64,000 bases of DNA from positions 2,790,001-2,854,000 of the forward strand of contig NZ_CP126446.1 of the NCBI RefSeq assembly GCF_030166655.1. Direction: 5' to 3'. The DNA is from Pontibacillus chungwhensis (GTDB lineage Bacteria; Bacillota; Bacilli; Bacillales; BH030062). Within the stretch, counting starts at the first letter, position 1, and the number at the start of each line of letters is the position of its first letter. Below the pieces are notes generated by a model, which was not told the DNA's origin, did no database searches, and worked only from the letters and a program-made list of their open reading frames with translations. A program made the translations under genes and the position numbers. Below, piece after piece: positions 34,135 through 50,802 of this stretch.

Positions 34135-34176
34135 ATGTTCCCGTTCTCTTTAATTTAGTGTAAGGTGGTTCGGGAA
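34135..34176 (+). repeat. Half copy of the palindromic element (left flank only)
   Basis: ATGTTCCCGTT (34135-34145), 16 nt of unrelated spacer, then AAGGTGGTTCGGGAA (34162-34176). The same two segments, with one base changed and a 17-nt spacer, form the left flank of the full element 185 nt downstream. Here neither the core nor the right arm is present. Confidence 0.7.
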
Positions 34177-34209: not shown

Positions 34210-34240
34210 AAAAAGGTGCCCCCATTGAGGACACCTTTTT
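34210..34240 (+). terminator. Terminator of yqeW
   Basis: AAAAAGGTG-c-CC pairs with GG-a-CACCTTTTT, followed by T residues. It lies 92 nt beyond the stop codon, downstream of the half repeat. Confidence 0.8.
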
Positions 34241-34318
34241 AATTGGCTCTGTTAAAGTTGGTTGTTGATTTTTACACGTTACATATAAGTCCCTAATGTG
34301 GAGCACCGGAAAGTGGGA

Positions 34319-34500
34319 ATGTTTCCGTTAACGTTAGTCTGAGCGGAAGGTGGTTCGGGAAATCACTCGCTTTCCGCGGCGAGCTGGGAAGCCTCCTCGT
34401 TCGCTTGCGCTCTCTGTGGGGTCTCCCCTAGGCTCCTTCTGCCGCAGGAGTCTCGCAATTTCCCGAACCACCTTTCCCATATTGAGAAGAACGGAAACAT
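34319..34500 (+). repeat. Palindromic element, copy A
   Basis: A nested inverted repeat around a ~94-nt core. Outer arms: ATGTTTCCGTT (34319-34329) and its complement (34490-34500). Inner arms: AAGGTGGTTCGGGAAAT (34347-34363) and its complement (34458-34474). Between the arms lie unpaired 17- and 15-nt stretches. The core begins CACTCGCTTTCCGCGG and ends CCGCAGGAGTCTCGCA; it contains GGGGTCTCCCC and AGCCT/AGGCT pairs. No open frame is supportable. Similar elements are copy B and copy C. Confidence 0.85.
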
Positions 34501-34546
34501 GCCATATTAGTGAATAGAGTTGAATCTATTCTACGATCTAACTGGA

Positions 34547-34723
34547 GGGCCGTCCCATCAAATTTAGATAAGGGGTGTCTGGGGAACGGGGAGACTCCTG
34601 CGGGAGAAAGAGGTCGACGAGACCCCGCAGGGCACGAATTTTGCCCGAGGAGGCTCGACAGCTCGCCCGCGGAAAGCGAGTCGTTCCCCAGACACCCCAA
34701 GCACTAGTCAATCAAGACGGCCC
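34547..34723 (-). repeat. Palindromic element, copy B (inverted)
   Basis: Same architecture as copy A, core in the opposite orientation. Outer arms GGGCCGTC (34547-34554) and complement (34716-34723); inner arms GGGGTGTCTGGGGAACG (34572-34588) and complement (34682-34698), with 17-nt unpaired stretches on both sides. Read on the minus strand the core starts ACTCGCTTTCCGCGG and ends CCGCAGGAGTCTCCC; its middle differs from A but keeps hairpins such as GGGC...GCCC. Together with copy A it fills the 686-nt gap before deoC. Confidence 0.85.
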
Positions 34724-34804
34724 CATCTACACTTAAATGTCTCAGCTTTGAGTATTGAACAAGCCTTTAAAATAACAATACTAAACTATAACAAAGCCTT
34801 CTAA

Positions 34805-35476
34805 TTAATAATCAGAAGTACCTTGGCCACCAGAAACGATGGATACGCCAGCACTTGCACCGATGCGAGTTGCTCCGGCTTCAATGACTGCATCTGCACC
34901 TTCACGGTCGCGAACGCCACCAGATGCTTTTACACCCATGTCAGGGCCTACGGTTTCACGCATTAGTTTAATATCTTCTACTGTTGCGCCGCCACCAGAG
35001 AAACCAGTGGATGTCTTCACGAAATCTGCTCCAGCTTCTTTAGCAAGTTGACAAGCTGTAACTTTTTCTTCGTTTGTTAGAAGAGACGTTTCAATGATAA
35101 CTTTTGTTAATGCTTTGCCTTCTGTAGCGCGAACAACAGCTTCAATGTCAGATTGAACTGTTTCTTTGTCTCCGCTCTTCAAAGCGCCGATATTGATTAC
35201 CATATCTACTTCAGTAGCACCGTTTTCGATAGCTTGTTTTGTTTCATATGCTTTTAATTCTTTTGTGTTAGCACCAAGCGGGAAACCAATTACTGTACAA
35301 ACCTTCACATCTGTATCTTGAAGACGTTCATAGCAGAATGGTACCCAGTAAGGATTCACACAAACAGAGGCGAAACCATATTCTTTCGCTTCTTGGCAAA
35401 TCTGCTCTATTTTTTCTTGTGCTGTATCTGGTTTAAGCTGTGTATGATCAATCATTTTTGCTAATTTAGCATCCAT
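34805..35476 (-). CDS. deoC: Deoxyribose-phosphate aldolase
   Basis: Class I aldolase splitting 2-deoxyribose 5-phosphate into acetaldehyde and glyceraldehyde 3-phosphate during deoxynucleoside breakdown. The 223-aa TIM barrel has the Schiff-base lysine K154 (FVKTSTGF), K183 (GVKASGGV) and the acidic D91. AAGGAAG precedes the ATG. It stands beside mtaB rather than in a nucleoside operon; pdp and nup genes are not in the window. Confidence 0.96.
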
Positions 35477-35602
35477 TAATAATCTTCCTTTCTCACTCGG
35501 GTTGTCCGTACCTCTTTTATCTTAGCATTATGTCCAAAAAAATGCTATACCCTATTAAAACGCTTACCTTATTATCTCAGAATCCCCAGTTTCTCATACA
35601 TA

Positions 35603-35638
35603 GAAAAAGGCCCTGTTGTGTAGCCAACAAGGACCTTT
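35603..35638 (-). terminator. Terminator of the dnaJ/prmA-rsmE-mtaB unit
   Basis: AAAGG, then TTGTTG / CAACA pairs and CCTTTTT on the minus strand form a hairpin with a small internal loop and T run, directly beyond the mtaB stop. Confidence 0.75.
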
Positions 35639-35643
35639 ACTAA

Positions 35644-37005
35644 TTAAGAAGATAACTCAATCGATTCGTCTGTTAAACTTGGTCGATCCATCACACGGAC
35701 AAATTGCCCTTTGTTATAAGGATAGCCCGCTTGAAGGATTTTAACACGAACGATTTCTCCTACCATATCCTCCGTGCCTTCAAATACAACTTTCAAATAG
35801 TTGTCGGTGTAACCAACGTAACGATTATCGTTCTCGTCATCCTTGAATTTCTCTTCAGGTATCACTTCTAGAACTTCACTATCGTATTGAGAGGCATATT
35901 CTTTTGCCTGCTGGTTCGATAACTCAATGAGTTGGTGCACACGATCATTTTTCACTTCTTCATCTACCTGGTCATCCATTCTCGCAGCAGGTGTACCTGT
36001 ACGTTTGGAATAAGGGAAGACGTGAAGCTCAGAGTAGCCAATTTCTTGAATGAAACGATAGGTTTCATTGAACTCTTCTTCCGTTTCACCAGGAAAACCA
36101 ACAATCACGTCTGAAGTTATAGCAAGTCCTGGCAACGCTTCTTTAATACGATCCACACGCTCTTTGTAGAACTCGGTTGTGTATTTACGACGCATACGTT
36201 TAAGAACAGTGTTCGAGCCGGATTGAAGAGGGATGTGAAGGTGACGAACAATCTTATCCGATTCACGCAGCACATCAATAACATCATCTGTTATTTGACT
36301 TCCTTCAATAGAAGAAATGCGGATTCTCTTTAATCCTTTTACCCTTTTATCTAATTCACGCAATAGCATAGCGAGATTATAATCTTTCATGTCCTCGCCA
36401 TAACCACCTGTATGGATACCCGTTAACACAATCTCTTTATATCCTGCATCCACAAGCTGCTGGGCTTGATGGATCACTTCCTCAGGATCACGAGAACGCA
36501 TTAACCCTCGCGCCCATGGAATGATACAGAACGTACAGAAATTGTTACAGCCTTCTTGAATCTTTAAAGAAGCTCGAGTACGGTCCGTAAAGGCAGGTAC
36601 ATCAAGTTCTTCATACGTACGTGTCTTCATAATATTTGTTACACCATTAATGGGTTGACGCTCTTCTTGATATTGTTTAATGTATTCAAGCATTTTTCGA
36701 CGATCCTGAGTGCCCACAACAATGTCCACACCCGGAATGTCCATGATTTCAGCTGGTGAGGTTTGTGCGTAACATCCGGTCACACATATAACCGCATCTG
36801 GATTCTTACGAATAGCGCGTCTGATTACCTGACGACTCTTCTTATCTCCTGTGTTTGTTACGGTACACGTGTTAATGACGTATACGTCGGATGAGCGATC
36901 AAAGTCTGTACGCTCATACCCCTCTTCCTTGAACAATTGCCAAATGGCTTCCGTTTCATAATGGTTTACTTTACAACCTAATGTATGAAAGGCAACTGAT
37001 GGCAT
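35644..37005 (-). CDS. mtaB: tRNA methylthiotransferase MtaB
   Basis: Radical SAM enzyme (453 aa, YqeV) that adds a methylthio group to t6A at position 37 of tRNA. Three domains: UPF0004 with its cluster cysteines (GCKVN, NTCTVT, VTGCYAQ), radical SAM with CNNFCTFC, and a C-terminal TRAM domain. Starts 4 nt after rsmE with GGGGTGAT upstream. Confidence 0.96.
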   Translation of the reverse strand: MPSVAFHTLGCKVNHYETEAIWQLFKEEGYERTDFDRSSDVYVINTCTVTNTGDKKSRQVIRRAIRKNPDAVICVTGCYAQTSPAEIMDIPGVDIVVGTQDRRKMLEYIKQYQEERQPINGVTNIMKTRTYEELDVPAFTDRTRASLKIQEGCNNFCTFCIIPWARGLMRSRDPEEVIHQAQQLVDAGYKEIVLTGIHTGGYGEDMKDYNLAMLLRELDKRVKGLKRIRISSIEGSQITDDVIDVLRESDKIVRHLHIPLQSGSNTVLKRMRRKYTTEFYKERVDRIKEALPGLAITSDVIVGFPGETEEEFNETYRFIQEIGYSELHVFPYSKRTGTPAARMDDQVDEEVKNDRVHQLIELSNQQAKEYASQYDSEVLEVIPEEKFKDDENDNRYVGYTDNYLKVVFEGTEDMVGEIVRVKILQAGYPYNKGQFVRVMDRPSLTDESIELSS

Positions 37006-37009
37006 AGGA

Positions 37010-37762
37010 TCACCCCAATTCCTCTAATTGATAGGACAGAGCTGAAAGAAAATATGTAGCAGCCGTTTCTGTTCTTAAAATTCTAGGACCTAACCGAACC
37101 GCTAGTGCCCCGGCTTCCTTCAACCTCTGAACTTCTTGTTCACTGAATCCACCTTCTGGTCCGATCAACACAAGTATACGCTCATCTTTTTGAACCTTCG
37201 TAAAGACTTCCTTTAATGAGTGGAATGATGGACTCTTCGCCTCATCTTCATAAGCAAAGATTACCCAATCATATTCTACTTGAAGCGCTAACAAATCTTT
37301 TAAAGAGTGTACATTAACGACTGACGGAATCATCGTTCGATGAGACTGCTCACTCGCTTCTTTTGCAATCTTTTGATATCTTGCTATTTTCTTTTGAGAT
37401 TTCTTTTGATCCCATTTTACAATGGAACGCTCTGCTTCAAAAGGGATAAATTTGGATGCGCCAAGCTCTGTTCCCTTTTGAATCACATGCTCCATTTTGT
37501 CTCCTTTAGGTAACCCTTGAGCAATCGTAACGGTAGCCGGAAGCTCTTTATCCTCTTCCAGCCACTCTACGATCTTACATGTTACTGATTCTGAAGTGAT
37601 CTCTGTGATCTCACATTCAGCCAGGTCACCCTCTGGTGTACAACATAATATATGATGTTCAGGCTTCATGCGCATAACTTTTCCGATATGGTGAACATCT
37701 TCTCCTGTTATGACGACATGCTGATCGTTCCATCCTGATAAAGGAACAAAATAACGTTGCAC
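37010..37762 (-). CDS. rsmE: 16S rRNA m3U1498 methyltransferase
   Basis: SPOUT-class rRNA methyltransferase (YqeU). The knot signature LIGPEGGFSEQEV and LRLGPRILRTETAA is intact; the N-terminal PUA-like domain starts MQRYFVPL. GTG at 37762 (250 aa) has AGGTG 6 nt upstream and gives the family's usual MQRYF start; the GTG at 37771 overlaps that site. Confidence 0.95.
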   Translation of the reverse strand: MQRYFVPLSGWNDQHVVITGEDVHHIGKVMRMKPEHHILCCTPEGDLAECEITEITSESVTCKIVEWLEEDKELPATVTIAQGLPKGDKMEHVIQKGTELGASKFIPFEAERSIVKWDQKKSQKKIARYQKIAKEASEQSHRTMIPSVVNVHSLKDLLALQVEYDWVIFAYEDEAKSPSFHSLKEVFTKVQKDERILVLIGPEGGFSEQEVQRLKEAGALAVRLGPRILRTETAATYFLSALSYQLEELG

Positions 37763-37780
37763 AATGGGCACCTGCTTTCT

Positions 37781-38719
37781 TTATGGTTTGCGAGCAATAA
37801 TAGATGTCCAATCTTCCATTTGATTGATTTCTACAATTTCAAAGCCGGATTCAATAAGTTGATCTTTCACTAATTGACGCTTATTCATAATAATGCCTGA
37901 TGTAATAAAGTAACCGCCAGACTTTAACGTATTGAAAGCATCATCCGTAAACTGAACAATAATCTCAGCTAAGATATTCGAAACAATCAAATCAGCCTCA
38001 AGGTCTACTCCTTGAAGAAGATTATTTTGCTGTGATTCAACCTGGTCTTCTACATTATTTAATTTAGCGTTAATGGTCGTACTCTTAACAGCTATATCGT
38101 CTAGATCAAAGGCATGGACATGCTTAGCACCTAATAAGACAGAGGCAATACTAAGAACGCCAGATCCTGCTCCTACGTCTAGGACTACATCGTTTTCTTG
38201 AATGTACTGTTCGATCGCCTGAATACTCAGCACCGTTGTAGGATGTGTGCCTGTTCCAAATGCCATACCCGGGTCAAGTTCAATAATGACCTCATCGCTT
38301 GAAACCGGCTCGTATTCTTCCCAGGTAGGAATAATGGTAACCTTCTCTGAGATCTTAACAGGCTTATAATACTTCTTCCATGCGGTGGCCCAATCTTCCT
38401 CGTTCAATTCACTAATTGTCACGTGATTACGCCCAATGTTGATATCGAATTCAATCAAATTGTTAATGGCATGCTTAATTTCTTCTACCGTTTCACCTAA
38501 AAAACTATTCACAGGAAGGTATGCTTTTACATACACACCTTCTGTGGGATAGTCATCTGGATTTAATTCATAGATCTCACCCATAAACGTATCTCTTTCC
38601 TTAAACAAGTCTTGTGGGTCTTCAATTACTACCCCACTAGCCCCTGCTTCATGCAAGATATTCGATATAGGCTCAATGGCTTCATTGGTTGTATGAATAC
38701 ATATCTCAGACCATTTCAA
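37781..38719 (-). CDS. prmA: Ribosomal protein L11 methyltransferase
   Basis: PrmA (YqeT, 312 aa) trimethylates ribosomal protein L11. SAM motif VLDVGAGSGVLSIASVLLGA and SNILAEII are clear. A TTG at 38719 gives the N-terminus MKWSEICIHT, matching the family; an in-frame TTG three codons earlier is also possible. Gene order dnaJ-prmA-rsmE-mtaB is that of B. subtilis. Confidence 0.95.
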   Translation of the reverse strand: MKWSEICIHTTNEAIEPISNILHEAGASGVVIEDPQDLFKERDTFMGEIYELNPDDYPTEGVYVKAYLPVNSFLGETVEEIKHAINNLIEFDINIGRNHVTISELNEEDWATAWKKYYKPVKISEKVTIIPTWEEYEPVSSDEVIIELDPGMAFGTGTHPTTVLSIQAIEQYIQENDVVLDVGAGSGVLSIASVLLGAKHVHAFDLDDIAVKSTTINAKLNNVEDQVESQQNNLLQGVDLEADLIVSNILAEIIVQFTDDAFNTLKSGGYFITSGIIMNKRQLVKDQLIESGFEIVEINQMEDWTSIIARKP

Positions 38720-38748
38720 TGGGATCAACTCTCTTTACTCTGGATTCC

Positions 38749-39873
38749 TTATTCGCCTTTAAAGGCGCGCTTAACACGTTGGAAAATGTTATCGTGTTGT
38801 TCTTCTGTTGGCTGGTTTCCACTAATATCATGGAACTCACGTAGTAATTCTTTCTGACGATCTGTCATTTTCGTTGGTGTCACTACGCGAATCTTTACGT
38901 GCTGGTCTCCATGACCATAGCCGCGAACATTTGGAGCACCTTTTTCTTTCAGGCGGAACGTTTTACCGTTCTGAGTACCTGCTGGAATCTTAAGGTTGAC
39001 GTTCCCGTGTACGGTTGGAACCTCAATTTCGTCACCAAGCGCCGCTTGTGTAAACGTTAGAGGCATCTCACAGAAGATGTGGTCGCCTTCACGTTTATAG
39101 AACTCGTGTGGACGGATTTGAACGACAACATATAAGTCTCCAGTCGGTCCTCCATTTTCACCAGGTTCACCTTGACCAGATACGCGAATACGCTGACCTT
39201 CGTCAATACCTGCTGGAATAGAAATATGAATTGTTTTACGTTTTGTAACTCTTCCATCTCCACCGCACGTATTACACTTATCTTTAATGATTTGACCTGT
39301 TCCTTCACAGTGATGACATACTCGGCGGTTCACAACGCGGCCAAATGGAGTGTTTTGTTCTTGATTAAGTTGTCCGGCACCTTGACAGTGTGGACAAGTT
39401 TCCGGCTTCGTTCCAGGTTTTGCACCAGATCCATCACATGTTTCACATTCTTCTTCTTTTGGAATTTGGACGTCTGTTTCTTTACCGAAGATGGCCTCTT
39501 CGAAGTTGAGCGTCATTGTATATTGAAGATCGGCGCCTCGACGAGGGGCATTCGGATCGCGACGGCGTCCTCCACCACCGAAGAACATGTCAAAGATGTC
39601 TCCAAAGCCTCCAAAGTCTTCGGCTCCACCGAATCCTCCGAAACCACCCTGGTTAGGACCTGCATGGCCAAACTGGTCGTATTGTTGACGTTTTTGCTCA
39701 TCACCTAGAACATCCCATGCTTCTTGGGCTTCTTTAAACTTATCCTCCGCATTGTCTTCCTGACTGACATCTGGGTGATATTTTTTTGCTAATTTACGAT
39801 ACGCTTTCTTTATTTCATCTTTAGAAGCATCTTTCGATACACCTAAAACCTCATAATAATCGCGTTTACTCAC
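38749..39873 (-). CDS. dnaJ: Chaperone protein DnaJ
   Basis: Type I Hsp40 co-chaperone (374 aa). J domain with HPD (YHPDVSQ), Gly/Phe-rich linker (~75-105), four zinc-finger repeats ([32 protein letters not shown]) and the two C-terminal substrate domains. GTG start with GGGAG upstream. A strong terminator after dnaK separates it from hrcA-grpE-dnaK, so a separate promoter or read-through is needed. Confidence 0.97.
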
Positions 39874-39994
39874 TGAAGATCACTCTCCCGACTCTCTACT
39901 CACATAAAGTTTATATTAACACGGTTTCATAACCGATTCAAAGTTAATTCATTCACATTATTCCCAATACACGAACAAACAAAATCCATACAGT

Positions 39995-40037
39995 AAAAAA
40001 GTCAAAGCCAAGATACCCCCTGACTTTGACTTTTTTT
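39995..40037 (-). terminator. Terminator of hrcA-grpE-dnaK
   Basis: AAAAAGTCAAAG / CTTTGACTTTTT arms with a partly paired loop lie just beyond the dnaK stop; T run on the minus strand. Confidence 0.8.
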
Positions 40038-40067
40038 ATCTGGATCATCCTGGTTTGGATGCTTTAT

Positions 40068-41906
<1,839 letters not shown>

Positions 41907-41923
41907 TCATATGTAGAGCGAGC

Positions 41924-42457
41924 TTATTGATTCACCTTCACCATTGATGGTCGGATCACGCGGTCATTTAGTTTATAACCTTTTTGAAGCTCCTCTACGA
42001 CAACATTTGATTCATAGTTTTCATCTTCTACTTGCATAACAGCTTGATGCATATGAGGATCAAATTCCTCCCCAACAGCTGGAATCTCTTCTAGGCCTTC
42101 TTTTTCTAGTGCACTCTTTAGCTGTTTATAAACCATGTTCATACCTTCTGCATACTTTTCATCCTGTGCTTCCACTTGGAGCGCACGTTCAAAGTTATCA
42201 AGTGCAGGTAATAATTCCTCAATTAGTGATTGAGATTTATATTTACGGTCGTTCTCACGATCTTTCTGCGTTCGACGACGGAAATTATCATAATCTGCTT
42301 GTAAGCGTAACAAACGTTGGTACGTTTCATCCTTTTCCTGTTGAAGTTTAGCTAGTTCATCATTTTCACCAGCGTCTTCTTCCACGATTTCTTGTTCAGG
42401 ATTTTCAACGACCTCTTCTTGTTCGACTTCTTCTGTTTGTTGTTTGTTTTCGTCCAT
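41924..42457 (-). CDS. grpE: Nucleotide exchange factor GrpE
   Basis: DnaK exchange factor (177 aa). A very acidic disordered N-terminus (~1-45) is followed by the long dimerisation helix ('[17 protein letters not shown]') and the C-terminal beta domain ('[15 protein letters not shown]', '[16 protein letters not shown]'). ATG at 42457 follows GGAGGAGGTG. Confidence 0.97.
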
Positions 42458-42644
42458 GTTTGTCACCTCCTCCAGAACTCGTTCGGTCTTTTGCACCGGT
42501 TAAGAATATATCAGAAATTGAATCTAAACTAAACCGATAACCCTTCAATTTTGGGTATTTTTTATAAAAAGCCCGTTCAACCTTATATGCAAGCAAATAG
42601 CTCTAGTAAAAAAGAGAACAGACGTCCTAAATTGCCTTTATCAT

Positions 42645-43688
42645 CTATTCCCCAGTTGAACCTTTTTGATACCAAGAATGGAATGTTTCTGTCATACGGT
42701 CTGAAAGTAAATTCAATAAAGAAATGACTTTTGAGTATTCCATCCGAGTAGGACCAAGCAAAGCGATTGTTCCTAGTTGCGTATCCCCAATGGAGTAGGA
42801 TCCAGTAATGATACTGAGATCTTTCATAGCACTCACTTCATTCTCTGTTCCAATAGAAACTTTGATATCACTTGAATTGTGACGGAGTAAGTGAGCAATT
42901 TCTGTTTCTTCTTCAATCATCGAATACAATGTTCTCACTTTATCAATGTCTCTAAATTCCGGCTGCATAAGAATGTTGGTCTTACCTCCAACGTAAAGCT
43001 TCGCTGGTTGTTCATCAAATAAAGCGGCTCGCAAATACTGATAGGCCTTCTCAAAATCACTTGTGTGCTTCTTGAGTAAGGTAGCAATTTCGGTATTTAA
43101 CTTATGGTGAAGATAAATAATCGGTACACCATTAAGCCTATCATTTAATATGTTGACCATCTTCTCTAGATCAGCTGGTTTAATTTCTACAGGAATTGTA
43201 AACGAGCGGTGCTCCACATGACCTGTATCCGTTACAAGAATCGCTACAGCAGAAATCTGCGATAGGGGAATGATTTGTAATTGCTTTAATTTTGTCTCGT
43301 ATACTTCGGGTCCAAGAATAATCGACGTATAGTTCGTCAACTCGGATAACACCCGCGCAGACTGCTGAACGACTTGTTCAAATTCAACCATTTGATTGTC
43401 AAAAGCTTGTTTCACAAAAGAAATTTCTCTTCCTGACAAGTTAAATGGAGACATCAAATGATCAACATAAAAGCGATACCCTTTTTCAGAAGGAACTCTT
43501 CCTGAGGAGGAGTGCGTCTTCTCAAGAAATCCTAACTCCTCCAAATCAGCCATTTCATTTCGAATCGTAGCTGAACTATAAGATACGCTTTCTTTTTTTG
43601 AGATCGTTCTTGATCCTACAGGTTGCGCAGACTGGATGAAATCATCAATTATCACTTGTAATATCAACAATTGTCTCTCTGTTAACAT
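42645..43688 (-). CDS. hrcA: Heat-inducible transcription repressor HrcA
   Basis: Repressor of class I heat-shock genes that binds CIRCE (347 aa). N-terminal winged helix (LTERQLLILQVIIDDFIQSAQPVGSRTI), central GAF-like dimerisation part and a C-terminal region. ATG at 43688 has GAGGTG 7 nt upstream; seven further in-frame codons upstream are not needed. A CIRCE element sits 15 nt before it, so the gene is autoregulated. Confidence 0.97.
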   Translation of the reverse strand: MLTERQLLILQVIIDDFIQSAQPVGSRTISKKESVSYSSATIRNEMADLEELGFLEKTHSSSGRVPSEKGYRFYVDHLMSPFNLSGREISFVKQAFDNQMVEFEQVVQQSARVLSELTNYTSIILGPEVYETKLKQLQIIPLSQISAVAILVTDTGHVEHRSFTIPVEIKPADLEKMVNILNDRLNGVPIIYLHHKLNTEIATLLKKHTSDFEKAYQYLRAALFDEQPAKLYVGGKTNILMQPEFRDIDKVRTLYSMIEEETEIAHLLRHNSSDIKVSIGTENEVSAMKDLSIITGSYSIGDTQLGTIALLGPTRMEYSKVISLLNLLSDRMTETFHSWYQKGSTGE

Positions 43689-43702
43689 GATGATCACCTC
43701 TG

Positions 43703-43729
43703 TTAGCACTCATTGAATGCGAGTGCTAA
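43703..43729 (-). promoter_or_regulatory. CIRCE operator (HrcA binding site)
   Basis: A perfect TTAGCACTC-N9-GAGTGCTAA inverted repeat between the promoter and hrcA. It is identical to the consensus. Confidence 0.98.
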
Positions 43730-43739
43730 ATCTAATAAT

Positions 43740-43768
43740 AAATTATCAAATGCCTCGCTCCTTGTCAA
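43740..43768 (-). promoter_or_regulatory. Probable sigma-A promoter of hrcA-grpE-dnaK
   Basis: On the minus strand a perfect TTGACA (43763-43768) is followed by GATAAT at 15 nt or TAATTT at 17 nt. CIRCE begins just downstream of this -10 region, the expected operator position. Confidence 0.6.
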
Positions 43769-43775
43769 CGATATT

Positions 43776-44924
43776 TCACTGAAGCTTTTCATCTTCAATT
43801 AAAAATTGAGCAAAAACCTCATTCCCAAAGAGTCTACCTTGAGGAGTGAGAGCAATATGATCCTCTGCTTCCGTTATCCAGTTTTTCCTTTTTAAATAAT
43901 CTAATTCACCCGAGTATAGGGAGTGGATGGAACGGCCGAAGCGTCTCTGGAATTCATCTAAAGAAACTCCTTTAACTTTACGTAATCCAAGGAACATTTG
44001 CTCCTCCATTTCTTCCTTATGGTGCACAGGTTCTACATAAAGTTGAGGGACACCCGTTTCCTTAGCCTTCTTCGTATATTGATTCAATGGCTTGATGTTT
44101 ACGGTGCGCTCCCCTGGTAAATACCCATGTGCACCTGCACCAAACCCATAATAGTAATCATTGTTCCAATATGTCAGATTGTGCTTGCTTTCATATCCTG
44201 GTTTGGCAAAGTTACTAATTTCATATTGATATACACCACTTTTGTTCATCTCACTCATGAGTAATTCGTACATGTTTGCCTCTTCTTCTTCGACAGGCTT
44301 ATGGAGTTTGCCTTTTTTATGTCGAAGATAGAAAACCGTTTTGGGCTCAATTTGCAACGAATAAGAAGAATAGTGGGGCAGACCCAACTGAAGTGCTTCA
44401 TCAATCGTTTTCTTGAACTGGTCATACGTCTGGCCGGGAAGGCCATACATTAAATCTACAGACACATTGTCAAATTGCTGCTTCTCAAACAGACGAAGAC
44501 TATCGTACACATCCTGTACTCGATGGTTTCGACCTAGTTTCTCAAGTAGTTCGTCATCAAACACCTGTACTCCAAACGATATTCGATTGACCCCATATTC
44601 CTTTAACAGAGCCAATTTCTTCTCATCAAATTCACCTGGATTCGCTTCAAACGTGTATTCGAGCGGCGCATCTACATCAAAGGATTCTGCAATCATCTTT
44701 AGCAAACGCTCAAGTTGTTCATAAGATAAAGCCGTAGGAGTTCCTCCTCCTACAAAAATTGTTTTCATTGGTTTCTTTTGCTTCCCAACTGCCGTTACAA
44801 TTTCGTTCTCTAATGCCTCTAAGTACTGATCAGCAAGTTCTGGGTTATAAAAGAACTTGGTGAAATCGCAATAATGACAGATCTGGTGGCAAAAGGGTAT
44901 ATGAATATAGGCTGATGTAATCAT
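43776..44924 (-). CDS. hemW: Haem chaperone / coproporphyrinogen oxidase-like HemW
   Basis: Radical SAM protein of the HemN/HemW family. The motif C12-x3-C16-x2-C19 (FCHQICHYCDF), GGGTPTALS and the HemW-type C-terminal domain are present. The CxxxCxxC is followed by D-F; HemW binds haem rather than acting as coproporphyrinogen oxidase. I used ATG at 44924, giving 382 aa, with AAAGGA 11 nt upstream; GTG at 44933 is an alternative. Confidence 0.92.
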   Translation of the reverse strand: MITSAYIHIPFCHQICHYCDFTKFFYNPELADQYLEALENEIVTAVGKQKKPMKTIFVGGGTPTALSYEQLERLLKMIAESFDVDAPLEYTFEANPGEFDEKKLALLKEYGVNRISFGVQVFDDELLEKLGRNHRVQDVYDSLRLFEKQQFDNVSVDLMYGLPGQTYDQFKKTIDEALQLGLPHYSSYSLQIEPKTVFYLRHKKGKLHKPVEEEEANMYELLMSEMNKSGVYQYEISNFAKPGYESKHNLTYWNNDYYYGFGAGAHGYLPGERTVNIKPLNQYTKKAKETGVPQLYVEPVHHKEEMEEQMFLGLRKVKGVSLDEFQRRFGRSIHSLYSGELDYLKRKNWITEAEDHIALTPQGRLFGNEVFAQFLIEDEKLQ

Positions 44925-45045
44925 GATCGTCACGTTCCTTTAAAATAAATTAGCTTTGTTCAAGCAAAGAGAGTACTAAAAGTTCTGTGGTGGCTCATTT
45001 ACTCCCTACTGCAGTTAAACATATATGGTCGCAAAGTTGAAAGTA

Positions 45046-45077
45046 TAAAAACCGCAAGAAAAGCTCCTGCGGTTTTA
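45046..45077 (-). terminator. Terminator of lepA
   Basis: AAAACCGCA / TGCGGTTTT stem with T tract on the minus strand, just beyond the lepA stop. Confidence 0.8.
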
Positions 45078-45088
45078 ATCGTTCTCTC

Positions 45089-46915
45089 TTATTTGTCGTC
45101 AGAATCCATTTCTAAAACAGCCATAAAGGCTTCTTGTGGCACTTCTACAGATCCGACCATCTTCATACGTTTCTTACCTTCTTTTTGCTTCTCAAGAAGT
45201 TTACGCTTACGTGAGATATCTCCGCCGTAACATTTTGCAAGTACGTTTTTACGCATCGCCTTAATGGTAGAGCGAGCCACAATTTTATTTCCGATTGCTG
45301 CTTGAACAGGTACCTCAAACTGCTGTCTCGGAATAAGCTCTACTAGCTTACTTGTAATGGCCTTACCTCTGTCGAATGCGAAGTCTCTGTGAACGATAAA
45401 GGATAAAGCGTCAATTGTATCACCATTTAACCAAATATCCATTTTCACAAGATTAGACGCACGATATCCAGCTAATTCGTAATCAAACGACGCATACCCT
45501 TTTGTTTGGGACTTCAGCTGATCGAAGAAATCATAAACGATTTCTGATAATGGAATATCATACGTAATATTGACGCGATTATCATCTAGGTACTGCATAT
45601 CTACAAATGATCCGCGCTTCTTCTGACAAATCTCCATAACAGAACCTACATAGTCATTCGGTACCATTACCGTTGCATTTACAAATGGCTCACGTACTTC
45701 ATTAATTGACTGTGGATCAGGCATTAGAGAAGGGTTATCAACGGTAACCGTTTCACCATCCGTAAGCTCAACTTCATAAATAACACTTGGAGCTGTCGTG
45801 ATCAGTTGAATGTTAAATTCGCGTTCAATTCGCTCTTGGATAATCTCCATATGAAGAAGGCCTAGGAATCCACAACGGAAACCAAATCCTAGCGCTTGTG
45901 ATGTCTCAGCCTCATATTGGAGAGAAGAGTCATTCAACTCAAGCCGCTCAAGGGCTTCACGTAAATCGTTGTAATTATTCGCATCAACCGGGAACATTCC
46001 ACAGAATACCATTGGGTTCAGACGTTTATAACCTGGTAATGGTTCTGCAGCCGGTTTGTCTACACGGGTGATGGTGTCCCCGACACGTGAATCACTTACG
46101 TTTTTAATAGACGCTGTTAAATACCCAACATCCCCTACAGTTAGTTCGTTCTTAGGAGTAGGCTTTGGATTGAATACGCCTATCTCATTAACCTCAAACT
46201 CTTTTCCAGTCTGCATCATGCGAATCTTCTGACCCACTTTAACAGATCCTTCTTTTACAGCGATTGAGGCAATAACTCCACGATAAGGATCATACAAGGA
46301 GTCAAAGATTAACGCCTTCAATGGATCTTCTGGTTCGCCAATCGGAGATGGAATTCGTTCTACAATGGCTTCTAATATCTCTTCAATTCCTTTTCCGGCT
46401 TTGGCTGAAGCTAAGATAACCTCATCTTTCGTCACGCCAAGCAGATCCTCAAGTTCCTTCGTTACCCGATCTGGATCAGCCGCTGGCAAGTCTACTTTAT
46501 TGATAACAGGAATAATTTCTAAATCATTATCTAATGCCAAATACAAGTTGGCTAATGTCTGAGCCTCAATTCCCTGCGCCGCATCTACGACTAAGATAAC
46601 CCCTTCACACGCTGCTAAACTACGAGATACCTCATATGTAAAATCGACGTGACCTGGTGTATCAATCAGGTGGAATAAATAATCCTCTCCCTTATGTGGA
46701 GAGCTATATCGTAATTGAACGGCGTTTAATTTAATCGTAATCCCACGCTCACGCTCTAAATCCATCGCATCTAGAAACTGCTCTTTCATTTCCCGCTGCG
46801 TCAGAGCTTTCGTCTTCTCTAAAATACGATCGGCTAATGTTGATTTGCCGTGGTCGATATGAGCGATAATTGAAAAATTCCGCACATTCTCTTGTTTAAT
46901 CTTGTCGCTACTCAC
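45089..46915 (-). CDS. lepA: Elongation factor 4 (LepA)
   Basis: Ribosome-associated GTPase that back-translocates or remodels ribosomes under stress. G1 [10 protein letters not shown]3 DTPGHVDF, G4 NKVD, then EF-G-like domains and the unique LepA C-terminus ([22 protein letters not shown]). GTG at 46915 (608 aa) has AGGAG 8 nt upstream; GTG at 46924 is too close. The region upstream is filled with a hairpin repeat array. Confidence 0.96.
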
Positions 46916-46984
46916 ATTAATCACTCCTACTTTAATCCGAAACCATAGCTAGCTTTGATTATAGCAATGTAGAGGGAATACTTC

Positions 46985-47103
46985 AATACGAAAAGCGCAG
47001 GGGGCTTGTTTAGGACCGTACGGATAAGCAAGCGAACGGAAGTGGCATTAGCCACTGGAGTTCGCTTGCTTATCTCGCTAGGTCCTAGCCCCCGGAGCTA
47101 GAC
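46985..47103 (-). repeat. Hairpin repeat unit 1 of the lepA-yqxA array
   Basis: A ~119-nt unit starting AATACGAAAAGCGCAGG and ending CCCCCGGAGCTAGAC. It folds into a long stem: GGGGGCT (47000-47006) with AGCCCCC, TAGGACC with GGTCCTA, ATAAGCAAGCGAAC (47024-47037) with its complement (47060-47073), and AGTGGC-atta-GCCACT at the tip. Strand is arbitrary because the unit is nearly palindromic. Confidence 0.8.
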
Positions 47104-47162
47104 AATACGAAAAGCGCAGGCGGGGTGCTTATCACGCTAGGCCCTCCCCGCCGGAGCTAGAC
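47104..47162 (-). repeat. Hairpin repeat unit 2 (short form)
   Basis: A 59-nt unit with the same first 16 and last ~15 bases as unit 1 but lacking the inner hairpin. It looks like an internally deleted copy. Confidence 0.7.
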
Positions 47163-47283
47163 AATACGAAAAGCGCAGGCGACTGTTCAGCCCCGTACGC
47201 ATAAGTAAGCTGACAGAAGTTCGCGTAGCGAACTGGAGTCAGATTGCTTATGACGCTAGGTCCTAGCCCCCGGAGCTGAACAT
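47163..47283 (-). repeat. Hairpin repeat unit 3
   Basis: A ~121-nt unit like unit 1. Its inner stem has different bases (ATAAGTAAGCTGAC against GTCAGATTGCTTAT) and its tip is AGTTCGC-gta-GCGAACT, so the fold is kept although the sequence has changed. The end reads GGAGCTGAAC, complementary to GTTCAG near its start. Confidence 0.75.
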
Positions 47284-47385
47284 CACCGAAAAGCGCAGGC
47301 GCACTAAGCACAAGAGGAAGTTCGACTAAAACCGCCGCGTCACCCGCCAACGACGAACGACCCCACATCGTGTGGGGCCGACGCA
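47284..47385 (-). repeat. Partial repeat unit 4 and flank before yqxA
   Basis: Begins with CACCGAAAAGCGCAGGCG like the other units, then diverges. It contains CCCCACA-tcg-TGTGGGG (47361-47377), a hairpin beyond the yqxA stop that may help terminate spoIIP-yqxA transcription. Confidence 0.55.
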
Positions 47386-47733
47386 TTAAAAGAACACCTG
47401 AAATAAGTGATAAATGGTATAAATAACAGTATTGTACGCCCAGTTGACCGCTTTTTCTAACATAACCGCTACTTTCTGAAGACCACGTGCTTCATTATGT
47501 TCCTGGTACTGTTGCTGTTTTTCCTGAACAGAGACTTGCTGAAAATCTCTACCAAGGACCTGGACTTCATAATCCCCTGTTTCTAACTTTTCCGTTTGAA
47601 CCGCTTCTTGAAAAGTTCCATTAGAAAAGCCTCGCATTTGGATCATTCCGATACTTGCTTGATTCATTCCGACTAATACGCCACCAAGGAACAATACAAT
47701 CATAATTAGAAACGTCACTGTGAAGCGTACCAT
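47386..47733 (-). CDS. yqxA: DUF3679 protein, YqxA-like
   Basis: A 115-aa protein of unknown function with one N-terminal membrane helix (~4-24, VRFTVTFLIMIVLFLGGVLVGM) and a short soluble part. It sits between spoIIP and lepA, exactly as yqxA does. ATG at 47733 has AAGGAG 9 nt upstream; an ATG 9 nt earlier directly abuts this site. Confidence 0.75.
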   Translation of the reverse strand: MVRFTVTFLIMIVLFLGGVLVGMNQASIGMIQMRGFSNGTFQEAVQTEKLETGDYEVQVLGRDFQQVSVQEKQQQYQEHNEARGLQKVAVMLEKAVNWAYNTVIYTIYHLFQVFF

Positions 47734-47746
47734 AGGGGTCATCTCC

Positions 47747-48904
47747 TTACTGATCTTCTGCTTGCCAATAAAAATCGCTAAACACTTCTCCAACTGCATC
47801 CGCACTTCGATATAATTCGTCTAATGTATTTTCCACACCACCAAACTCAATCAGCATTGCGTTCTGAGATAAATCTTGATTGAATTTGCCATTGGTCCCG
47901 GAGCCCTTCTTTGTCATGACGCCGCGACTCAATCCAGGATAAGCCTCTTCCATCTTTTCATGAAGTTCATTTGCTAGCTTTAAATTTTGTTCATAGTGAG
48001 CGTACTCTCCTCCGACAATAAAGAAAATTCTGGCATAGGTCTTACCATCTATTTCGGCTGTTGTATGTTCCTTACCAATTGCATCTCTATGAAGATCAAA
48101 ATAATATTGCAGTTCTCTTTCTGAACTCATCGCTTCTTGAACAACAGCTCTGGACATATCATAGGATTCATAATATTCCATACCTTTATCTTTCAATTGC
48201 TTCGTTATATCCGTCTTATCAACTTTGGCTCCAATTCCATTGTCTTTTAAACTTTCAGCTAATCGATCGCCTACTAGCGTAATATTCGCTTTAGAATGAA
48301 AAGCATCTGTTGCCCCATCTGGAAGAATAGGGAAATAAGATTCTCGATTATGAGTGTGGTAGATCAACACTACATCTTTATCGCCTGTTGTTGGCAAGGC
48401 TTGGTCTTTAGGAGGACTATCTTGCGCTGGAGATTGACCTTCTTTTGGTACAACCCCTTCTTCTTCCTGATCGAATATTTCCATAGGTGGAGAAGATTCA
48501 ACCGCCATCGTCGTATAGTCTGTTCCTTCACCTGCTACAACAATTTGACCATCATATGCCGAAAAGCCGGGCAACTCTCTACCTAAGAAAGAACGAGGGT
48601 CATCTGGCTTAATGCTTGTGGCCATTTGAAACAGACCTTCTGACATTTTTATGTGTTCATAATCCTCTGGATATGCCCCTTCAAATAACCGATTCTCCAT
48701 ACTCATTAAATGTAAAAAGGATGGACCGCTAATTTGGCTCGTCCAGGTATGAAGGGTAGAAGAAGACAGGCGATAAGCAGGCTGAATAGAGGTAAGTAAC
48801 CCAATTAACAGAAAGACTCCTACTAAGCCTATTAAATAAATTCCACTACGTTTATACCATCTCTTCAGTTCTCTATGAACAAGTAGTAATCCCTTAGAAC
48901 TCAA
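47747..48904 (-). CDS. spoIIP: Stage II sporulation protein P
   Basis: Membrane-bound peptidoglycan amidase/endopeptidase that works with SpoIID and SpoIIM to thin septal wall and drive engulfment. TM anchor ~18-38, extracytoplasmic amidase domain with IYHTHNRESYFP, later HYEQNLKLANELH and MLIEFGGVENT. Start is TTG with AAAGGGTG 8 nt upstream. It is followed by yqxA. Confidence 0.93.
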   Translation of the reverse strand: MSSKGLLLVHRELKRWYKRSGIYLIGLVGVFLLIGLLTSIQPAYRLSSSTLHTWTSQISGPSFLHLMSMENRLFEGAYPEDYEHIKMSEGLFQMATSIKPDDPRSFLGRELPGFSAYDGQIVVAGEGTDYTTMAVESSPPMEIFDQEEEGVVPKEGQSPAQDSPPKDQALPTTGDKDVVLIYHTHNRESYFPILPDGATDAFHSKANITLVGDRLAESLKDNGIGAKVDKTDITKQLKDKGMEYYESYDMSRAVVQEAMSSERELQYYFDLHRDAIGKEHTTAEIDGKTYARIFFIVGGEYAHYEQNLKLANELHEKMEEAYPGLSRGVMTKKGSGTNGKFNQDLSQNAMLIEFGGVENTLDELYRSADAVGEVFSDFYWQAEDQ

Positions 48905-48986
48905 AGCAAGGTCACCCTTTCTCTTGTTTCCTGACTCTAGTAAACTCTATGAAAACTAGAGAAAGAGTAGAACCTCTGTCTATCTT

Positions 48987-50090
48987 TTATCTTGTAAAAG
49001 AATCTTCTGTGTCTGGTTCGACATCTTCATGAAGAGCTGCATTTAATCCGCTCGCCACGACATGAGCCATATCTTTCATAAACCCATCTACTTCTTTAGG
49101 TGTGACCATTAAGTTATGCCCAATTGGAGTCAAGACCTCTCGGATAAGCTTTCTTTTCTCCTGATCTGACAATCCTCCGATCATTCCTAATACAGCTTTA
49201 CGTTGGTCTTCATTTGGTAAATCCTCATCTGTAAGCTCTTTTTTCTCACCAAAGTCCATGCCAGCAGGAGTCAACGATTTGGATGGTTTCTCCTTTTCGT
49301 TCCATTCTCTCCCAAAATGCTTAAGCATATAATCAATCGTATCACTTGCAATCGTCACCGCATCGACAACAGTCGGGATCCCTAAAGAAATAACAGGTAT
49401 TCCTAGCGTTTGTTCACTTAACTCTTTGCGCTTGTTCCCAACCCCTGACCCTGGATGGATTCCTGTATTTGATAGTTGGATTGTACTATTCACCCGATCA
49501 ATGGAGCGAGATGCTAAAGCATCCACAGCGATTACAAAGTCAGGTTTTACTTTCTCAATGACGCCTACGATAATATCACTTGTTTCTAACCCCGTTACGC
49601 CCATAACACCTGGGGTAATAGCAGATACTGGACGGAACCCTTTGTCCACTGTTTCAGGTTGAAGTTCAAACATATGGTTCGTAACAAGCAGCTTATCAAC
49701 CACCATAGGCCCTAAAGCATCAGGGGTTACGTCATCATTTCCTAATCCAACAACAAGGCATCTGGCATCCGGGGCTACATTACTTTTCGTTAGCAGCTCC
49801 TCTAGCTCTCGAGCAACTACCGATGCCGTATGATGCATTAGACTTGTATCATGTTTACGAATGCCTTGGGATTCAATCGTAATGTAAGAACCAGGCTTTT
49901 TTCCGATTTGTTCCGATCCTTTTTCATCCACTTCTACATAAGTAACTTTTATATCTTCAGCTTCCTTCTTCTCCTGGACACGTACCCCTTCAGGATGCTC
50001 AGAATCTTGCTTCCCTTTTTGTGATGCCATGTCTTTAGCTTCAACAGCTAAATCGGTTCGGACTTGAAAATGATCTAGATTCACTGACAT
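48987..50090 (-). CDS. gpr: Germination protease GPR
   Basis: Spore protease (367 aa) that degrades small acid-soluble proteins early in germination. It is made as a zymogen; a short propeptide precedes DLAVEAKD. The conserved acidic residues lie in [16 protein letters not shown] and [13 protein letters not shown] sigma-G-type promoter lies just upstream, fitting forespore expression. Gene order spoIIP-gpr-rpsT is as in B. subtilis. Confidence 0.96.
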
Positions 50091-50112
50091 GCGAAACCCT
50101 CCGTTTTTTTAC

Positions 50113-50142
50113 TAGGATGCACGTCCCTTTTCTCTTTCATAC
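50113..50142 (-). promoter_or_regulatory. Sigma-G/F-type promoter of gpr
   Basis: On the minus strand GTATG (consensus gHATR) and CATCCTA (consensus CATnHTA) are 18 nt apart, 23 nt before the gpr start codon. gpr is a forespore (sigma-F and sigma-G) gene in B. subtilis. Confidence 0.7.
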
Positions 50143-50266
50143 ATGAGTGAAAATGATTATGATCCTATATTTATGTTGAAAACTGTTGTGTGCTCTGATA
50201 AAATGTCTCTTGTTCGAATAAATGCTCTTTTAAAGCAGGTTCAATTTCTCCAGGAGGTGAAAATAG

Positions 50267-50533
50267 ATGGCTAATATCAAGCAAGCTAGAAAACGTGTTA
50301 TTACACAAAACAACCAGCGCGCTCAGAACAACTCTTTCAAATCTGATGTTCGTTCTGCAATGAAGCGTGTTGACAACCTAGTTGACAACAACAAAACTGA
50401 GGAAGCTAAAGAAGCTTTCAAAGATGCTGTACAAAAGATCGATAAGGCTGTAGGCAAAGGTCTTATGCACCGCAACAAAGGTAACCGTCAGAAAGCTCGT
50501 CTTTCTCGTCGCGTTAAATCCGTTACAGCGTAA
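50267..50533 (+). CDS. rpsT: 30S ribosomal protein S20
   Basis: Basic helical 16S rRNA-binding protein (88 aa), starting MANIKQARKRVITQNNQR and ending RKARLSRRVKSVTA-like. AGGAGGTG precedes the ATG. It is divergent from gpr and has its own terminator. Confidence 0.97.
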   Translation: MANIKQARKRVITQNNQRAQNNSFKSDVRSAMKRVDNLVDNNKTEEAKEAFKDAVQKIDKAVGKGLMHRNKGNRQKARLSRRVKSVTA

Positions 50534-50564
50534 ATACGTCATTCCGTTTTTATGACCAACCAAC

Positions 50565-50595
50565 AAACGATCCTACTAAGAGGGTCGTTTTTTTA
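50565..50595 (+). terminator. Terminator of rpsT
   Basis: AAACGATCCT / AGGGTCGTTT (one G-T pair) followed by TTTTTT. The next repeat element begins only a few bases downstream. Confidence 0.85.
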
Positions 50596-50598
50596 TGT

Positions 50599-50802
50599 AA
50601 AAATTTAGAGGAGGTCCGTTACGATAAAAGTGCTTGAGGCTAGATGGGGGACAGCTCGCTTTCCTGCGGTGAGCTGGGAAGCCTCCTCGTTCGCTATCGC
50701 TCTCTGTGGGGTCTCCCCTAGGCTCCTTACCCCGCGGGAGTCTCGCCATCCCCCATCTAGCCTCCACATCATTTGTTTAACGGACCTTCAGCCTAAATTT
50801 TT
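50599..50802 (+). repeat. Palindromic element, copy C
   Basis: The largest copy. Three nested arm pairs: AAAAATTTAG (50599-50608 with 50793-50802), AGGTCCGTTA (50612-50621 with 50778-50787) and GAGGCTAGATGGGGGA (50636-50651 with 50749-50764), each perfectly complementary, separated by unpaired 14- and 13-nt stretches. The core starts AGCTCGCTTTCC and ends CGCGGGAGTCTCGCC and matches copy A closely in its middle. It lies between the rpsT and holA terminators, outside any gene. Confidence 0.88.

What the first reader, a model, noticed from the sequence alone, without database searches (positions are those of the whole stretch)
34319..50802. Three dispersed elements whose inverted arms differ between copies but always pair perfectly
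Copies A (34319-34500), B (34547-34723, inverted) and C (50599-50802) share one architecture: outer arm of 8-11 bp (with a further 10 bp in C), an unpaired stretch of 13-17 nt on each side, inner arm of 16-17 bp, and a core of about 95 nt. The inner arms can be aligned: AAGGTGGTTCGGGAA, GGGGTGTCTGGGGAA, AGGCTAGATGGGGGA. They differ at 8 of 15 columns, and in each copy the opposite arm carries the complementary base. This looks like covariation, so a folded RNA or DNA cruciform appears to be conserved rather than the sequence. A transposon with fixed terminal repeats would not look like this.
Basis: partly seen in the sequence, partly recalled or inferred. Interest (0 to 1): 0.82.

Follow-up and report, generated by a model that had tools for sequence, protein, structure and literature searches.

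The report
Mobile DNA hairpins with co-varying arms
The three hairpins belong to a very common repeat of Bacillus-like bacteria, often carried by a small transposon, whose two arms change together so that they still match, and the pattern of changes points to pairing kept at the DNA level rather than to a folded RNA.

Summary
Observation confirmed. A, B and C share one architecture with different, complementary inner arms. This genome gives 126 model matches; the family is in 44 of 61 sampled Bacillales genomes, 37 of 51 genera. No Rfam family reaches its threshold on A, B or C. Covariation is real: on a core-based tree of 105 copies, 162 arm changes hit both partners and 43 one; 147 same-branch coincidences against 14.7 expected.

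The RNA reading is not supported for the arms. Of 1712 arm cells 1660 are Watson-Crick, 9 G·T, 13 A·C, 30 other; 94 of 162 compensated changes are transversions, which cannot pass through G·U.

"Not a transposon" is wrong for A+B: they fill one 554-bp element (34245-34798) with GGCTCTGTTAAAG-type inverted ends and a 7/8 target duplication. Of 27 such elements in held loci, 13 have perfect 8-bp duplications; flank identity peaks at 8. C and most clusters lack these ends.

Best reading: a palindromic DNA module, partly MITE-borne, with a homogenised core and arms maintained at DNA level. Transposase and host function unknown. Ten literature searches turned up no description.

The parts
34237..34244 (.). 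left target-site duplication TTTTAATT (7 of 8 with the right one)
34245..34257 (+). left terminal inverted repeat GGCTCTGTTAAAG of the A+B composite
34319..34500 (+). hairpin A: outer arm, internal loop, inner arm, ~94-nt core, and mirror half
34347..34363 (+). A inner arm, left (pairs with 34458-34474)
34458..34474 (+). A inner arm, right
34547..34723 (-). hairpin B, convergent to A
34572..34587 (+). B inner arm, low-coordinate side (pairs with 34683-34698)
34683..34698 (+). B inner arm, high-coordinate side
34786..34798 (-). right terminal inverted repeat of the A+B composite (2 of 13 mismatched)
34799..34806 (.). right target-site duplication TTCTAATT
34135..34176 (+). truncated relative of A: outer arm, loop and left inner arm only
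50599..50802 (+). hairpin C, between rpsT (50267-50533) and a holA-like gene (gene names recalled from the translations); no GGCTCTGTTAAAG end within 230 bp at up to 3 mismatches
50636..50652 (+). C inner arm, left (pairs with 50748-50764; the innermost pair is A·C-type mismatched)
50748..50764 (+). C inner arm, right

Best explanation
A, B and C are copies of one dispersed palindromic DNA module: a ~95-nt core at the tip of a long stem. The module is spread through Bacillaceae genomes at least partly as cargo of a non-autonomous MITE-like transposon, as a monomer of about 180-210 bp or in longer forms of about 400-740 bp, several with two convergent hairpins. Shown: GGCTCTGTTAAAG-type terminal inverted repeats and 8-bp target-site duplications on a minority of copies, high copy number, occupancy of the same sites in related species, and in-place inversion and remodelling. 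Shown: the arms co-vary, and only Watson-Crick pairs are tolerated; G·U is no better than any other mismatch. Inferred: an unidentified transposase acts in trans on the ends. Inferred: the stem matters, or is repaired, as DNA, either by template switching or fold-back copying of one arm from the other when the hairpin extrudes, or because only well-paired hairpins are mobilised. Inferred: gene conversion or constraint keeps the core near-identical.
For: Copies: 126 matches in this genome, from 150 scored candidates of 923; 44 of 61 Bacillales genomes. Ends: 27 distinct TIR-bounded, core-containing elements; mean flank identity 0.82 at length 8 against 0.41 shuffled (maximum 0.51), with only shoulders at 7 (0.55) and 9 (0.50); 13 of 27 perfect. 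The window's A+B composite is one of them (7 of 8). In this genome 21 of 100 clusters have the end motif on at least one side, against 4 of 100 in the reversed-orientation control. Ends work with other cargo: two Aneurinibacillus plasmid elements of 787 and 618 bp with the same ends and 8/8 and 7/8 duplications carry a small gene instead of the hairpin core. Covariation. DNA level: among 1712 arm cells 1660 WC, 30 other mismatches, 13 A·C, 9 G·T; 94 transversion to 68 transition WC-to-WC changes. Single elements show no clear orientation preference to tandem genes, called from open frames: 27 same, 17 opposite, of 44. Dynamics: at rpsT-holA, G005 carries a C-type copy with other arms and G006 a fused remnant; between G003 and G002, 2 of 5 compared composites are inverted in place. 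A published precedent for template switching maintaining stems exists (PMC8794818; abstract and introduction seen).
Against: Most clusters (79 of 100) show no GGCTCTGTTAAAG end within 230 bp at up to 3 mismatches, C among them, so mobility by these ends is shown only for a minority. No autonomous element with these ends was found. On the tree, non-partner columns also coincide above expectation (1.8 versus 0.6 per pair; partners 9.2), so the independent-branch expectation is too low in part. Core helices show 39 A·C against 6 G·T on the + strand, which would be G·U on the other strand, but 31 of the 39 are one pair; a transcribed core is not excluded. Template switching is inferred: neighbouring pairs change on the same branch only slightly more often than chance (24 versus 17.6, p=0.04). 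That arms differ more than cores reflects core homogenisation (core 4%, arms 16-17%, loops 24-27%). The model was built from the same genome's copies (36 of 41 aligned), and the alignment is fitted to it.
Confidence: 0.66

Rival explanations
1. A family of structured non-coding RNAs (or RNA 3' elements); the stem is conserved because the RNA must fold, and covariation arises by selection through G·U intermediates.
For: Strong covariation. Folding 6.5-7.9 sd below shuffles. A conserved core across 37 of 51 genera. Core A·C on + is G·U on -.
Against: Arms: 9 G·T versus 13 A·C of 1712 cells. Transversions outnumber transitions 94 to 68 among compensated changes. Gene orientation 27:17. TIR and 8-bp TSD on a minority of copies. 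Copies up to 96% identical in this genome and 94.5% over 674 bp in G003.
Confidence: 0.15
2. REP/BIME-like repeats mobilised by a RAYT (Y1 HUH transposase) that recognises the hairpin as single-stranded DNA.
For: Palindromic, dispersed, convergent pairs (17 of 18 pairs). Y1_Tnp genes occur in 55 of 61 of these genomes, some of the longer, RAYT-like kind (the label is recalled).
Against: None of 20 such loci (about 1.5 kb each side, 14 genomes) contains a copy at E <= 0.1 (the model is less sensitive outside the genus). G014 and G021 have 22 and 16 copies and no Y1_Tnp match; G036 and G040 have Y1_Tnp genes and no copies. An 8-bp duplication is not expected of Y1 enzymes (recalled).
Confidence: 0.08
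3. The core is a unit that inserts into the loops of many pre-existing hairpins, so the arms pair because each target already was a hairpin, not because they co-evolved.
For: Nested insertions at fixed spots in the core recur, including Rfam Bacillaceae-1. Arms differ between lineages while the core is kept.
Against: Within this genome the 38 perfect arm types are mostly one or two pair changes apart (24 of 38 have a neighbour at distance 1 and 11 at distance 2). Loops and outer arms are shared between copies. Core-less hairpins with the same arms were not searched for systematically.
Confidence: 0.1

Closest known systems
bcr1 of the Bacillus cereus group (Bcr1, 167-bp model in PMC2267715)
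   Same: A hairpin-forming dispersed repeat of similar length, classed with bacterial MITEs (passages of PMC2267715 and PMC3733652).
   Different: The bcr1 sequence was not compared. The present family is in other Bacillales and has a shared core, lineage-specific co-varying arms, and in part GGCTCTGTTAAAG ends.
Bhal-1 / Bhal-2 stem-loop families of Bacillus halodurans (PMC2267715)
   Same: Multi-copy stem-loop repeats in a related genus (table rows seen).
   Different: Models of only 74-76 bp, and their sequence is not in the passages read, so identity or overlap could not be tested.
Bacterial MITEs in general (RUP, NEMIS, Nezha; named in PMC3733652)
   Same: Short, non-coding, inverted ends, high copy number.
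   Different: Here the inside is a modular hairpin whose arms co-vary between copies, and other hairpins nest at fixed spots in its core.
Rfam RF01690 Bacillaceae-1 RNA
   Same: A multi-copy repeat of the same genomes; some copies sit inside the core of this element.
   Different: Distinct sequence; most copies checked in this genome are elsewhere (11 of 14), and Bacillus subtilis has it too (control).
REP/BIME with RAYT
   Same: Dispersed palindromes, often in inverted pairs (recalled).
   Different: Far longer; no RAYT link seen; 8-bp duplication and TIRs on part of the copies.

Membership tests
MITE (non-autonomous DNA transposon) | terminal inverted repeats | tested here: met
   Met for part of the copies: 27 elements bounded by GGCTCTGTTAAA-type ends with at most 3 of 24 mismatches; 21 of 100 clusters in this genome on at least one side (4 on both) versus 4 of 100 control. 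Not seen on the other 79 clusters, including C.
MITE (non-autonomous DNA transposon) | fixed-length target-site duplication | tested here: met
   8 bp, 13 of 27 perfect, mean 0.82 versus 0.41 shuffled; much lower at other lengths
MITE (non-autonomous DNA transposon) | no coding capacity, high copy number | tested here: met
   126 matches. In one search the longest open frame in core-bearing elements of up to 599 bp was 119 aa.
MITE (non-autonomous DNA transposon) | partner autonomous element with the same ends | tested here: inconclusive
   none found in own genome, 12 relatives, held loci, or 10 plasmid neighbourhoods looked at
Structured ncRNA | covariation above phylogenetic expectation | tested here: met
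   147 same-branch coincidences versus 14.7 expected; non-partner control 1.8 (expected 0.6) versus 9.2 per partner pair. R-scape itself was not available.
Structured ncRNA | G·U tolerated on the functional strand | tested here: not met
   arms: G·T 9, A·C 13 of 1712; core inconclusive
Structured ncRNA | strand-specific transcript | not testable with these tools
   no RNA-seq available
Known Rfam family | match at gathering score | tested here: not met
   none on A, B or C; over A and B only chance-level matches (best E 0.32) far below gathering; none on the cores of 15 related loci except RF01690 nested in L246
REP/BIME-RAYT | elements flank or co-occur with the RAYT gene | tested here: not met
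   0 of 20 loci; discordant co-occurrence
bcr1, Bhal-1/Bhal-2 | sequence similarity to the published repeat | not tested
   sequences not available in the passages read

The most novel reading that the evidence does not exclude
A Bacillales-wide class of self-maintaining DNA palindromes. A conserved core caps a stem whose arms are rewritten from each other by DNA template switching. The result is mobile hairpins that keep perfect pairing while their sequence drifts, that host nested hairpins in their core, and that imitate RNA covariation so well that some catalogued 'structured RNAs', such as Bacillaceae-1, may be mobile DNA hairpins of the same kind.
Probability: 0.22. Interest if true: 0.78.

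Novelty: new variant of a known kind. Interest (0 to 1): 0.52.

Why it matters
Covariation is commonly treated as strong evidence of a functional RNA fold. This family shows strong covariation across dozens of copies without the G·U signature of RNA, and part of the copies lie inside a transposable element. It is therefore a natural test case for telling DNA-level from RNA-level pair maintenance. It is also an abundant repeat across Bacillaceae, without a matching Rfam family and not found in the literature searches made here, that occupies and rearranges intergenic regions.

Tried and rejected
RAYT mobilisation: Y1_Tnp searched in 61 genomes, 20 loci fetched and scanned, no copy. IS1182 as partner: one copy lies just upstream of an IS1182 transposase on a Peribacillus plasmid, without GGCTCTGTTAAAG ends at up to 3 mismatches in the stretch held; not pursued. 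Autonomous element with the same ends: own genome pattern, 12 relatives, held loci, plasmid hits to the end sequences (44 and 20 records, 10 neighbourhoods looked at). Four Geobacillus/Parageobacillus hits lie at one shared plasmid backbone region; one of them has a broken transposase beside it, and the Priestia flexa hit lies 0.9 kb from an IS6-family gene whose surroundings show no such end. Integron attC-like site: considered from memory only and dropped because copies are dispersed singly. Terminus avoidance: uneven in this genome but not in the listed matches of G003, so no claim. 'Arms evolve faster than the core' looked striking, but loops differ still more, so it was withdrawn as evidence for arm hypermutation. 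In one search arms of 83 copies from named genomes paired better with their own partner than with swapped ones (mean -16.8 versus -11.5 kcal/mol), but 22% of swaps were as good as the own median, so this test is weak outside the Pontibacillus/Halobacillus type. Literature: ten searches; nothing listed looks like a description of this repeat by title and start of abstract, but searches listed only 20 of 286 and 20 of 47 papers; core-sequence strings gave 0 papers. Passages were read of PMC2267715, PMC2864571 and PMC3733652, and abstract and introduction of PMC8794818.
Full report
What is in the sequence. A (34319-34500) and C (50599-50802) lie on the + strand and B (34547-34723) on the - strand. 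Their inner arms are exact reverse complements, and each folds 6.5-7.9 sd better than dinucleotide shuffles. No Rfam family matches them at gathering score; over A and B only chance-level matches appear with lax settings (best E 0.32). The genome is most likely a Pontibacillus: two near relatives have contigs of the same length as named P. salipaludis and P. chungwhensis contigs. This is an inference.

How common it is. A covariance model built from 36 copies of this genome gives 126 matches at E <= 0.001 here, two of them the two strands of one place, from 150 scored candidates of 923. It gives matches in 44 of 61 Bacillales genomes and 37 of 51 genera, with one congener (G004) lacking it at this threshold. 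Across genera the core is recognisable while the arms differ between lineages; several genera share a GTTGATT outer arm. In one search the flanking arms of 83 copies paired better with their own partner than with swapped ones (mean -16.8 versus -11.5 kcal/mol), but 22% of swaps reached the own median. The contrast is clear in the Halobacillus and Pontibacillus type; Peribacillus-type copies have short paired arms with a long internal loop.

Is the covariation real? Yes. On the model alignment of 108 copies, all 17 arm pairs have changes on both sides, and no column shuffle reaches the observed score. On a tree of the core alone (105 copies), the two partners of a pair change on the same branch 147 times against 14.7 expected if independent. 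Partners coincide 9.2 times per pair; non-partner columns 1.8 times, themselves above their expectation of 0.6, so relatedness and tree error explain part but not most of it. There are 38 distinct perfect arm sequences among 69 perfect copies of 108. The alignment is fitted to the model, which favours pairing somewhat, but the arms are end-anchored.

RNA or DNA? In the arms (16 pairs, 107 distinct copies) 1660 of 1712 cells are Watson-Crick. The rest are 30 non-wobble mismatches, 13 A·C and 9 G·T. If an RNA strand were under selection, G·T should exceed A·C on that strand; it does not. Among compensated changes, 94 are transversions and 68 transitions, although only transitions can pass through G·U. 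Imperfect copies therefore look like fresh mutations without wobble tolerance. In the core, 39 A·C against 6 G·T would be G·U on the opposite strand, but 31 of these are one pair; the core also has 127 other mismatches under the structure used, partly from misalignment between subfamilies. Single elements show no clear orientation to neighbouring tandem genes, called from open frames (27 same, 17 opposite).

A transposon, at least in part. In Pontibacillus and other genera the module is bounded by GGCTCTGTTAAA-type inverted ends. I collected 27 distinct such elements in all held loci: monomers of 180-211 bp and longer forms of 406-742 bp, including the A+B composite of the window (34245-34798). 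The 8 bases outside the two ends agree at 0.82 on average, against 0.41 after shuffling partners; 13 of 27 are identical. Identity falls to 0.55 at 7 and 0.50 at 9 and is near background at other lengths. That is a target-site duplication of 8 bp. In this genome 21 of 100 clusters have the end motif on at least one side, against 4 of 100 for the reversed-orientation control. C and the other clusters do not, so they are older, truncated, or carried by other ends; G003 composites end differently. No autonomous partner was found. The ends are not tied to the hairpin: two Aneurinibacillus plasmid elements (787 and 618 bp) with the same ends and 8/8 and 7/8 duplications enclose a GNAT-family gene and a hypothetical gene instead. 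So the hairpin looks like one cargo of a set of ends moved in trans.

Dynamics. Pairs are almost always convergent (17 of 18). Related species carry elements at the same sites, often with other arms, subtype or orientation. Between G003 and G002, whose unique flanks are 92-96% identical, five sites were compared: in two the inside is inverted (one over 670 bp at 86% identity, one recognisable from two shorter reversed matches), one has its inside replaced, one lacks the element within a larger deletion, and one is collinear. Among core-nearest neighbours the core differs by 4%, the arms by 16-17% and the loops by 24-27%. So the core is homogenised or constrained; the arms are not unusually fast.

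How it most likely works. Shown: mobile ends on part of the copies, high copy, co-varying stems without wobble, in-place inversion. Inferred: a transposase in trans; pairing kept because the extruded hairpin lets one arm template the other, or because only well-paired hairpins are mobilised. Template switching that restores stems is described by Monttinen and Loytynoja (PMC8794818; abstract and introduction seen). Direct support here is weak: 41 of 69 branches with compensated changes carry more than one, and adjacency is only slightly enriched (24 versus 17.6, p=0.04).

What it is not, as far as tested. RAYT-driven REP: 0 of 20 Y1_Tnp loci carry a copy, and presence does not track. A described repeat: ten literature searches turned up none, though long lists were seen only in part, most subscription papers are not held, and Bhal-1/Bhal-2 of B. 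halodurans (PMC2267715, table rows seen) could not be compared.

A side result. Rfam Bacillaceae-1 lies inside the core of these elements in several places: L246 1991-2057 and own-genome 539243-539309 and 982878-982944. In G003, 26 of 57 listed copies lie within 700 bp of a listed element, where 3% would be expected. In this genome 11 of the 14 copies checked, of 23, are not near one. Its status as an RNA deserves the same test.

Noticed in passing
window 46984-47376: Tandem array of ~56-nt repeats (D1, D3) next to an Rfam Bacillaceae-1 hit (47310-47376); by eye, a similar ~120-bp unit is inserted at one fixed spot in the core of several hairpins of this family.
   Followed up: partly
L246 1991-2057; G000:C1 539243-539309, 982878-982944: Rfam Bacillaceae-1 (RF01690) sits inside the core of these palindromic elements, so this catalogued sRNA may be a nested mobile hairpin; most copies checked in this genome lie elsewhere.
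   Followed up: partly
L405 1924-2710 and L409 2201-2818 (Aneurinibacillus plasmids): Elements with the same GGCTCTGTTAAA ends and 8-bp duplication (8/8 and 7/8) enclose a GNAT-family gene and a hypothetical gene and no transposase: small gene cassettes moved by the same ends.
   Followed up: partly
G000:C1 1.75-2.75 Mb and 0-0.25 Mb: Copies are nearly absent: 3 of the 108 best matches lie in 1.75-2.75 Mb and none below 0.25 Mb; the listed matches of G003 do not show this.
   Followed up: partly
L032 (Peribacillus plasmid) 1480-1700: A copy lies just upstream of an IS1182-family transposase gene, beside a terminator-like hairpin.
   Followed up: no
L257 vs L275; L246 vs L273: Orthologous non-coding composites of two close species are inverted in place between the same flanks.
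   Followed up: partly
window 34135-34176: A lone left half of hairpin A with an identical inner arm, probably a truncated third copy.
   Followed up: no
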